A stretch of 64,000 bases of DNA from Bacteroidota bacterium (lineage in GTDB: Bacteria > Bacteroidota > Ignavibacteria > Kapaibacteriales > UBA2268), in assembly GCA_021780815.1 (NCBI GenBank), contig JAJXYC010000005.1:124001-188000 (forward strand), in the 5' to 3' direction. The number at the start of each line of letters is the position of its first letter. The first letter of the stretch is position 1. Of the stretch, positions 31,041-32,270 are shown piece after piece. The notes below the pieces were generated by a model. It was given only the letters and a program-made list of their open reading frames with translations, had not been told where the DNA came from and ran no database searches. The translations under genes and the position numbers were made by a program.

Positions 31041-31097
31041 AAAACTATCTCAAAATGAATTGAATTTAAATATTAATTCCTGTTTTGAGATAGTTTT
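31041..31097. terminator. Stem-loop after the acidic-protein gene
   Basis: AAAACTATCTCAAAA pairs perfectly with TTTTGAGATAGTTTT around a 27-base loop. It lies directly downstream of the acidic-protein gene on the minus strand and before the antiporter gene. It shares its core with hairpins at 22243 and 54730. Confidence 0.65.
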
Positions 31098-31117: not shown

Positions 31118-31393
31118 CTAGAAATCTTCGTCATCAAAATCTTCGTCATCATCTAAGAAGTCGTCATCTAGATCTTCATCGTCGAGGTCTTCGTCTTCTA
31201 TATCATCGTCGTCAAGTTCTTCGTCATCAAAATCATAATCTTCAAAATCACCATCTTCATCAAATTCATCTAAACCATCTTCATCAAACTCTTCATCATC
31301 ATTAATATCTTCGTCTTCATCGTCAAAGTCCTCGTTTTTACTTGCTAAAGAAAATTCGGGAAAAGAAAGTAATAATAATTCTTCGTAAAACAT
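31118..31393 (-). CDS. Small, extremely acidic Asp/Glu-rich protein
   Basis: A 91-residue protein of unknown function. The first 19 residues (MFYEELLLLSFPEFSLASK) are hydrophobic to mixed. The remaining 72 residues include 36 Asp and 16 Glu and no Lys or Arg, with Phe, Leu or Ile placed regularly between acidic runs (for example DLDDEDLDDDFLDDDEDF). GGAG stands 7 bases before the ATG, and a hairpin terminator follows the stop, so it looks like a real single-gene unit rather than chance low complexity. Disordered acidic tails of this type bind cations, ribosomal or DNA-binding proteins, or mimic nucleic acid. No family was recognised. The antisense strand is an equally repetitive TCATCATC-type sequence. 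Confidence 0.65.
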   Translation of the reverse strand: MFYEELLLLSFPEFSLASKNEDFDDEDEDINDDEEFDEDGLDEFDEDGDFEDYDFDDEELDDDDIEDEDLDDEDLDDDFLDDDEDFDDEDF

Positions 31394-31529
31394 TTTATTT
31401 CTCCATTTTATTTAATAAAAACAAATTTTCTATATTTTGTAGTTTAATTTTTTTTATCAATTTTTCAAAAATTCAAAAATAATCTTTTTTTTGAAATTAC
31501 AAAAATTTCAAAAAAAAATATAGAAGTTT

Positions 31530-32270
31530 TTATTTAATATTATTAACTAATTCGTATAAGATTTTTTCAGCCTGTCCTTCTAAATAAAAATCAGTAATAG
31601 AGTCTGTAAACGTTGATTTACCTTTATTTATTTCAATAATAATTGAACCATGTTCTTTTGCTGTATGAGGAATAATTGATGCAGGCATCACTTTACCACT
31701 TGTACCAATAATTAAAAATGTATCTGCCATTTGAGCTTCTCTCATTGCTCCATTGTAAACTTTTGTATTTATATCTTCACCAAAAAAAGTAAAATTAGGT
31801 TTCAACAAGCCTTTGCATTTAAGACAAAATGGAATTTCTTGCGATAAATTAATCTGCTCTTTCAAAAAAATTGTTTTGCAGTTCATACAAACAAGTTCTC
31901 TTGAATTTCCGTGAAATTCAAATATATTTTTATTTCCTGCTAAAAAATGTAAATTATCAATATTTTGGGTAATAATACTTCTTAACTTTCGTGAACGTTC
32001 AAGATGAAAAAGAGCAATATGTGCAGGATTAGGGTTAGCATTTGCAAATTTATTATAGAACAATTCTTTGATAACGTTCCAAGATGATTTAGGATTGTTA
32101 AGAAAAAAATTAATTTCTAAGTTCTCAGGATTATATTTTTTCCAAATCCCTTCATCTCCTCTAAAAGAGGGAATACCACTACTTACAGAAATTCCTGCAC
32201 CTGTAAATGCAACAATTTGTTTGCTCTTTGATATAATTTTTAAAACTTTATTGAAATTTTCATTATTCAT
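31530..32270 (-). CDS. Sir2-family NAD-dependent protein deacylase
   Basis: Sirtuin of 246 residues that removes acyl groups from lysines using NAD. The Rossmann entry GAGISVSSGIPSFRG lies near residue 24. TQNIDNLH is near 101, with catalytic His120 in FEFHGN. A zinc ribbon is formed by Cys128, Cys131, Cys149 and Cys152. The later NAD-binding GTSGKVMPAS is also present. The usual GTS-L-x-V-x-P motif here reads GTSGKVMPAS, with Gly in place of Leu. Length is typical of the short bacterial CobB class. It is divergent from korA and has no operon partner. Acetyl versus succinyl preference cannot be decided by eye. No Shine-Dalgarno sequence is seen. Confidence 0.92.
   Translation of the reverse strand: MNNENFNKVLKIISKSKQIVAFTGAGISVSSGIPSFRGDEGIWKKYNPENLEINFFLNNPKSSWNVIKELFYNKFANANPNPAHIALFHLERSRKLRSIITQNIDNLHFLAGNKNIFEFHGNSRELVCMNCKTIFLKEQINLSQEIPFCLKCKGLLKPNFTFFGEDINTKVYNGAMREAQMADTFLIIGTSGKVMPASIIPHTAKEHGSIIIEINKGKSTFTDSITDFYLEGQAEKILYELVNNIK

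What the first reader, a model, noticed from the sequence alone, without database searches (positions are those of the whole stretch)
31118..31393. 91-residue protein with an almost pure Asp/Glu tail
Of the last 72 residues, 52 are Asp or Glu, with no Lys or Arg and with single large hydrophobics spaced in the runs. It has its own ribosome binding site and terminator, and a short hydrophobic head. It could be a nucleic-acid mimic, ribosome- or polymerase-binding factor, calcium buffer, or an anti-defence protein.
Basis: partly seen in the sequence, partly recalled or inferred. Interest (0 to 1): 0.5.

Follow-up and report, generated by a model that had tools for sequence, protein, structure and literature searches.

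The report
Conserved polyacidic protein beside a sirtuin
A small, almost pure Asp/Glu protein is a real gene kept next to a sirtuin (protein deacylase) gene in several related Kapabacteria, and probably works as a floppy, strongly negative tail that grips positively charged proteins; nobody has tested it.

Summary
It is a real gene, conserved in Candidatus Kapabacteria. In all 6 family genomes found with this sirtuin clade (51-57% identity to ours) an acidic ORF follows the sirtuin on the same strand. It was absent from 24 other family sirtuin loci inspected and 12 relatives elsewhere in the class. The pair stays together while flanking genes differ. Closest pair: differences at codon positions 1/2/3 = 7/6/32. 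Stand-alone acidic proteins of this kind, at four kinds of place, occur in 20 of 54 family genomes. Hydrophobics are evenly spaced, also in two homologues found by position, not pattern. No Pfam, NCBIfam or PHROG match; AlphaFold2 gives no confident fold. I infer a disordered polyanion gripping basic proteins, working like prothymosin alpha or the RNA-polymerase delta tail. Boldest open reading: a bacterial 'converse reader' of lysines bared by its sirtuin. No partner is shown.

The parts
31118..31393 (-). Acidic ORF, 91 aa plus stop
   Evidence: conserved after the sirtuin in 6 genomes
31337..31393 (-). Head, residues 1-19: hydrophobic, possible short helix (residues 3-10, low confidence)
31121..31336 (-). 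Tail, residues 20-91: 72% Asp/Glu with single hydrophobics about every 5 residues, no Lys/Arg
31401..31404 (-). Shine-Dalgarno GGAG, 7 nt before the ATG
   Evidence: read from the sequence
31041..31097 (-). Terminator-like inverted repeat after the acidic ORF (15-bp arms, then T-run); separates it from the antiporter gene
   Evidence: not called by the consensus scan
31530..32270 (-). Sirtuin (CobB-like Sir2, 246 aa), conserved upstream neighbour of the acidic ORF
   Evidence: Pfam PF02146 5.1e-46; best NCBIfam CobB below its cut-off; synteny
31394..31529 (-). 136-nt AT-rich spacer between sirtuin and acidic ORF (86-125 nt in five relatives); possible co-transcription
   Evidence: transcription not measured

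Best explanation
It is a genuine, conserved, cytoplasmic polyanion protein: a short hydrophobic head followed by an intrinsically disordered tail in which acidic residues hold single Phe/Leu/Ile side chains apart and exposed. It most likely works by multivalent, fuzzy electrostatic binding to Lys/Arg-rich surfaces of other proteins (ribosomal, nucleoid or RNA-polymerase surfaces that normally bind nucleic acid), shielding, releasing or solubilising them, as prothymosin alpha or the acidic tail of the Firmicutes delta subunit does. In this lineage it is encoded directly behind a CobB-type sirtuin and probably made with it. Shown here: reality of the gene, frame conservation, sirtuin pairing, even hydrophobic spacing. 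Inferred: disorder, co-transcription, electrostatic binding. Unknown: the partner.
For: Net charge -54 in 91 aa, no Lys/Arg in the last 72. Frame under constraint: G001 against G002 differ at 7/6/32 sites of codon positions 1/2/3. Sirtuin-acidic pair in 6 of 6 family genomes with this sirtuin clade, same strand, 86-136 nt apart, with four different sets of genes downstream. Even spacing of hydrophobics in G000 (P=0.001) and in homologues found by position, G076 (P=0.0012) and G018 (P=0.045). AlphaFold2 pLDDT 58.5, pTM 0.14, one low-confidence helix 3-10. Physical precedent: the delta-subunit acidic region (residues 91-173) is disordered with net charge -47 (PMC7749165, passages); prothymosin alpha binds a charged partner while staying disordered (PMC11971343, start of abstract).
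Against: No binding partner or expression data. Neighbours differ between lineages (sirtuin, PPDK, DUF4835/unknown gene, clpP-like), so no neighbour identifies the partner. The sirtuins paired with it are not specially basic: net charges +6, -2, 0, +2, -11, -9. 34 of 54 family genomes showed no such stand-alone protein in the searches made, so it is not essential to the family. Only PPDK- and sirtuin-linked members share a head motif by eye; homology across places rests on composition-biased alignments.
Confidence: 0.5

Rival explanations
1. Delta-like transcription or ribosome factor: the tail enters a nucleic-acid channel of RNA polymerase (or a ribosomal site) and displaces nucleic acid, recycling the machine.
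For: Charge and length match the delta acidic region (net -47 over residues 91-173; PMC7749165, passages). Weak PDB matches are to the acidic start of sigma factor RpoS (best E 0.089), which is not significant. Some kapabacterial trigger factors, a ribosome-associated chaperone, carry similar acidic tails (6 of 53 examined loci).
Against: No folded docking domain such as delta's N-terminal domain; no rpo or ribosomal operon linkage in the sirtuin-linked set.
Confidence: 0.17
2. Converse reader paired with its writer: the sirtuin removes acyl groups from lysines of target proteins, restoring positive charge, and the acidic protein then binds those bared Lys-rich segments.
For: Strict pairing with one sirtuin clade and a one-change fit on the tree. 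In human cells acidic domains (SET, VPRBP, DAXX, PELP1) bind unacetylated but not acetylated Lys-rich p53 tail (PMC5348303, whole text).
Against: Stand-alone acidic proteins of the family also sit away from any sirtuin; no acylome data; the 12 closest sirtuins elsewhere in the class lack the neighbour.
Confidence: 0.13
3. Metal buffer: carboxylates bind Ca, Mg, Fe or Mn with low affinity and high capacity.
For: 55 acidic residues.
Against: Regular Phe/Leu spacing is not needed for it; no transport or metal gene in the conserved neighbourhood except a cation/H+ antiporter in this genome only.
Confidence: 0.06
4. Nucleic-acid mimic acting as anti-restriction or anti-defence factor.
For: Strong negative charge; the motif searched also occurs on viral contigs (24 stretches; by eye 14 lie in ORFs under 200 aa, some near-duplicates).
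Against: No PHROG or PADLOC family; vertical-looking conservation beside a housekeeping sirtuin in two genera; no defence gene next to it.
Confidence: 0.04
5. Low-complexity by-product of GAT/GAA slippage with little or no function.
For: Tail length varies among relatives; nonsynonymous differences are common outside the closest pair (e.g. G000-G018: 28/22/37); no sign that codons are arranged to avoid identical neighbours (7 of 37, expected 8.7, P=0.25).
Against: Mixed third positions (23 GAT, 13 GAC, 17 GAA, 2 GAG), even spacing, 7/6/32 codon-position pattern, conserved place and Shine-Dalgarno-like sequences.
Confidence: 0.1

Closest known systems
RNA polymerase delta subunit (RpoE) acidic C-terminal region, Firmicutes
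   Same: Disordered, net charge about -50 over some 80-90 residues (PMC7749165 passages; own protein)
   Different: Delta has a folded N-terminal domain of about 90 residues; here only a 19-residue head and no Pfam match
Prothymosin alpha and eukaryotic D/E-repeat proteins
   Same: Small stand-alone disordered polyanion; D/E repeats are described as prevalent in eukaryotes, about half in DNA/RNA-binding proteins (PMC10250230 passages)
   Different: Bacterial; single hydrophobics spaced about every 5 residues; no sequence relation shown
Acidic-domain 'converse readers' (SET, DAXX, VPRBP, PELP1)
   Same: Acidic domain that would bind Lys-rich segments only when unacetylated; a deacylase gene is the conserved neighbour here
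   Different: No folded partner domain, no known client, no acylation test (PMC5348303 read whole)
Acidic C-terminal tails of kapabacterial trigger factors
   Same: Same [DE]n-Phe composition, in two genera of the same family
   Different: Fused to trigger factor instead of free
CrsL, small disordered actinobacterial transcription regulator
   Same: Very small, intrinsically disordered bacterial protein with a protein partner (PMC12709188 passages)
   Different: Binds CarD; the passages seen do not describe it as polyacidic

Membership tests
RNA polymerase delta subunit (RpoE) | Folded N-terminal domain of about 90 residues | tested here: not met
   No Pfam or NCBIfam match for the protein; head only 19 residues
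RNA polymerase delta subunit (RpoE) | Long disordered acidic C-terminal region | tested here: met
   Net charge -54; no confident fold; disorder itself not measured
Known curated protein families (Pfam, NCBIfam, PHROGs, PADLOC) | Match to a curated profile | tested here: not met
   0 families
Acidic-domain converse reader | Binds Lys-rich ligand, abolished by acetylation | not testable with these tools
   Needs binding assays
Acidic-domain converse reader | Strongly acidic domain | tested here: met
Folded DNA-mimic / anti-restriction protein | Compact fold presenting DNA-like charge | tested here: inconclusive
   AlphaFold2 with only 6 sequences gave no confident fold
Sirtuin (neighbour), Sir2 family | Sir2 domain | tested here: met
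   PF02146 E 5.1e-46, residues 24-196; the CobB equivalog model scored 264.4, below its cut-off of 320

The most novel reading that the evidence does not exclude
A bacterial lysine-charge switch: a CobB-type sirtuin and a stand-alone acidic 'converse reader' encoded as a pair, the sirtuin baring lysines and the polyanion then gripping them, so that protein acylation state is read by electrostatics in a bacterium; more widely, small Asp/Glu proteins with evenly spaced Phe are an overlooked, recurrent class of bacterial disordered protein across many phyla.
Probability: 0.13. Interest if true: 0.75.

Novelty: new variant of a known kind. Interest (0 to 1): 0.45.

Why it matters
Free-standing polyanionic disordered proteins are discussed mainly for eukaryotes (PMC10250230 passages). 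A conserved bacterial family, tied in one lineage to a deacylase, would give a compact and testable system for charge-based regulation and would help annotate many small acidic ORFs that profile and BLAST searches miss because of their composition: protein searches found no relative that the pattern and synteny searches then found.

Tried and rejected
Protein search of 60 relatives with the acidic protein gave only two weak hits besides itself (E 0.079 and 0.15), not supported; composition defeats it. The antiporter as partner was rejected: its loci in four genus-mates have no acidic ORF within the 1.5 kb fetched on either side. Named-genome search with the sirtuin found nothing. A link between acidic trigger-factor tails and absence of the free protein was tested: tails with at least 18 acidic of 25 occur in 6 of 53 loci (two genera), none among the 20 genomes with the free protein, but with two genera this is not significant and I do not lean on it. 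A basic surface on the paired sirtuins was looked for by net charge and not found as a rule. Recurrent neighbours of similar proteins in other phyla were looked for: small clusters only, no universal partner. Codon arrangement against slippage: no evidence. PDB profile search: nothing. Papers: ten searches were made (one search failed on its wording); none of the listings showed this family; 'Kapabacteria' with 'sirtuin' or with 'acidic protein' gave 0 papers. The library is open-access only.

Full report
What is there. Window 31118-31393 holds a 91-codon ORF on the minus strand. 52 of the last 72 residues are Asp or Glu, none is Lys or Arg, and the net charge is -54. A GGAG sequence lies 7 nt before the ATG (by eye). 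Downstream is a 15-bp perfect inverted repeat followed by a T-run; the consensus terminator scan called none. The window is G000:C18:124001-188000 of a 2.63-Mb genome. In that genome all matches to two [DE]4-hydrophobic patterns, exact or with up to 3 mismatches, fall in this ORF.

More than chance. The tail has 6 hydrophobic spacings of exactly 5 (shuffle mean 1.3, P=0.001) and 8 [DE]4-hydrophobic units (mean 4.2, P=0.004); I chose these measures after seeing the tail. A less tailored measure, variance of the spacing, is low in G000 (P=0.001) and in two homologues found by position rather than by the pattern: G076 (P=0.0012) and G018 (P=0.045). Asp codons are 23 GAT and 13 GAC; the GAC share is above that of the long ORFs of the window (0.36 against 0.19, P=0.017), but codons are not arranged to avoid identical neighbours (7 of 37 pairs, expected 8.7, P=0.25).

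Taxon. The window itself is therefore from Candidatus Kapabacteria.

The sirtuin pairing. A protein search misses relatives: in 60 relatives only two weak hits besides itself. The pattern GANGANGANGANNTN twice matched 21 of 54 family genomes with no match of the reversed control; reading the ORFs, 12 of these 21 genomes have a small stand-alone acidic protein and the others are tails or stretches of larger proteins. Neighbours showed the sirtuin directly upstream, same strand, in G000, G001, G002, G004 and G034. Searching the sirtuin gave matches in 51 of 54 family genomes, 56 places, of which 30 were fetched. The six places with 51-100% identity (G000, G001, G002, G004, G034, G018; genera g1 and g15) all have the acidic ORF, 86-136 nt downstream; none of the other 24 fetched places has an ORF with 14 or more acidic residues in 25 within the flank, some flanks being cut by contig ends. 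The remaining 26 places were not inspected. A fifth genome of genus g1, G003, has only a sirtuin of 36% identity. In 123 genomes of the order no further close sirtuin was found (E 1e-50). In 391 genomes of the class, 15 passed E 1e-60; the 12 outside the family (f11, f18) have no acidic ORF beside them, one flank being short. On a tree of 42 sirtuins the acidic-linked ones are separated from the f11/f18 ones by one branch (99/99), so one origin of the pair suffices; the own sirtuin is a long branch and forks among the six are open. The genes beyond the pair differ: antiporter, c28, c126 or c146 downstream and c15, c29, c149 or another ORF upstream. A pair that survives such rearrangement is more than a frozen neighbourhood.

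Selection on the frame. Acidic ORFs of G001 and G002 differ at 7, 6 and 32 sites of codon positions 1, 2 and 3, with 19 synonymous and 19 nonsynonymous codon differences. More distant pairs are less clear, e.g. G000-G018 28/22/37 with 7 synonymous and 43 nonsynonymous; alignment of such tails is also unsure. The spacers between sirtuin and acidic ORF are short and AT-rich, and in most a purine-rich Shine-Dalgarno-like stretch precedes the acidic ORF (by eye).

Other places in the family. With 3 mismatches a three-unit pattern matched 32 of 54 genomes; the reversed control had 9 matches in 7 genomes, so single weak matches mean little. Reading the ORFs, stand-alone acidic proteins lie (a) behind the sirtuin in 6 genomes; (b) directly behind pyruvate phosphate dikinase (PPDK; Pfam) in 7 of the 30 PPDK loci inspected out of 40 places: G008, G022, G060, G024, G075, G076, G077; (c) before an unknown gene 'c3' in G005, G015, G023, G063, G064, G065 (G015 by eye), four of them also beside DUF4835; (d) beside a ClpP-like gene in G013 (name by eye). 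That is 20 of 54 genomes and 9 of 27 genera. Three g9 genomes have a less acidic ORF one gene beyond PPDK. Heads of sets (a), (b, genera g5 and g19) and (d) share a [KR]-[YIM]-x-[LM] then acidic motif by eye; the identity figures of 37-55% are inflated by composition, so one family is likely but not proved. The own genome's PPDK has no acidic neighbour. Some matches (G025:C93, G019:C26, G077:C54) were not examined.

Wider distribution. Small clusters share neighbours: five with a gene of which the one tested is a metallophosphatase, four with one tested as a PNP phosphorylase, three beside one tested as RsfS, two before one tested as HisRS, two beside one tested as PTPS. No neighbour is common to all. 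Viral contigs gave 24 stretches, by eye 14 in ORFs under 200 aa, several near-duplicates.

What it is not, by test. No Pfam, NCBIfam, PHROG or PADLOC family. PDB: five weak matches, best E 0.089 to the start of RpoS; with the alignment profile none. AlphaFold2 on six sequences: pLDDT 58.5, pTM 0.14, helix 3-10 only, consistent with disorder but also with a shallow alignment.

How it most likely works (inference). A chain of 55 acidic residues with single Phe/Leu/Ile held apart is a polyelectrolyte that would bind Lys/Arg-rich surfaces in a fuzzy way and compete with nucleic acid for them. Precedents: the acidic region of the delta subunit, disordered, net -47 (PMC7749165, passages); prothymosin alpha, which stays disordered when bound (PMC11971343, start of abstract); D/E repeats of eukaryotic DNA-binding proteins (PMC10250230, passages). 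The sirtuin link suggests, but does not show, a connection with lysine acylation. In human cells acidic domains bind the Lys-rich p53 tail only when it is unacetylated, and these authors propose a general 'converse reader' mode (PMC5348303, whole text). A sirtuin that bares lysines next to a polyanion that could grip them would be a bacterial version. Against it: members sit away from sirtuins in other genera, the paired sirtuins are not specially basic (+6, -2, 0, +2, -11, -9), and no client is known.

Verdict. Real, conserved, without a known family; mechanism open. The kind (disordered polyanion) is known, the free-standing sirtuin-paired bacterial form is a new variant as far as the ten searches of an open-access library go.

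Noticed in passing
L262:1-693 minus (own genome, contig C15, next to PPDK): Start of a Cas12a gene (PADLOC Cas12a E 2.2e-77; NCBIfam cas_Cpf1 E 1.4e-67 on the 231 residues held, below the full-length cut-off).
   Followed up: partly
trigger-factor loci L299-L351: Kapabacterial trigger factors have very variable C-terminal tails: acidic in genera g18 and g25, His/Asp-rich in several others (e.g. G011, G019, G020, G064).
   Followed up: partly
L132, L140, L144: Lentisphaeria/Victivallis acidic proteins with a Cys-rich, zinc-ribbon-like head (weak Pfam hit, E 0.0082, below cut-off, L132); in L132 and L140 beside a 6-pyruvoyl-tetrahydropterin synthase gene.
   Followed up: no
L105, L149, L186, L192, L196; L095, L146, L151, L169: Two clusters in which an acidic ORF is followed by a metallophosphatase-like gene or a PNP-phosphorylase gene (one member of each tested by Pfam); titles seen are planctomycetal.
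   Followed up: partly
L087, L157, L171: Acidic ORF in a conserved place beside RsfS and LytR-like genes; two titles seen are Treponema.
   Followed up: partly
G000:C14:5886-6584: The own genome has a second, distant sirtuin (39% identity); it was not inspected for neighbours.
   Followed up: no
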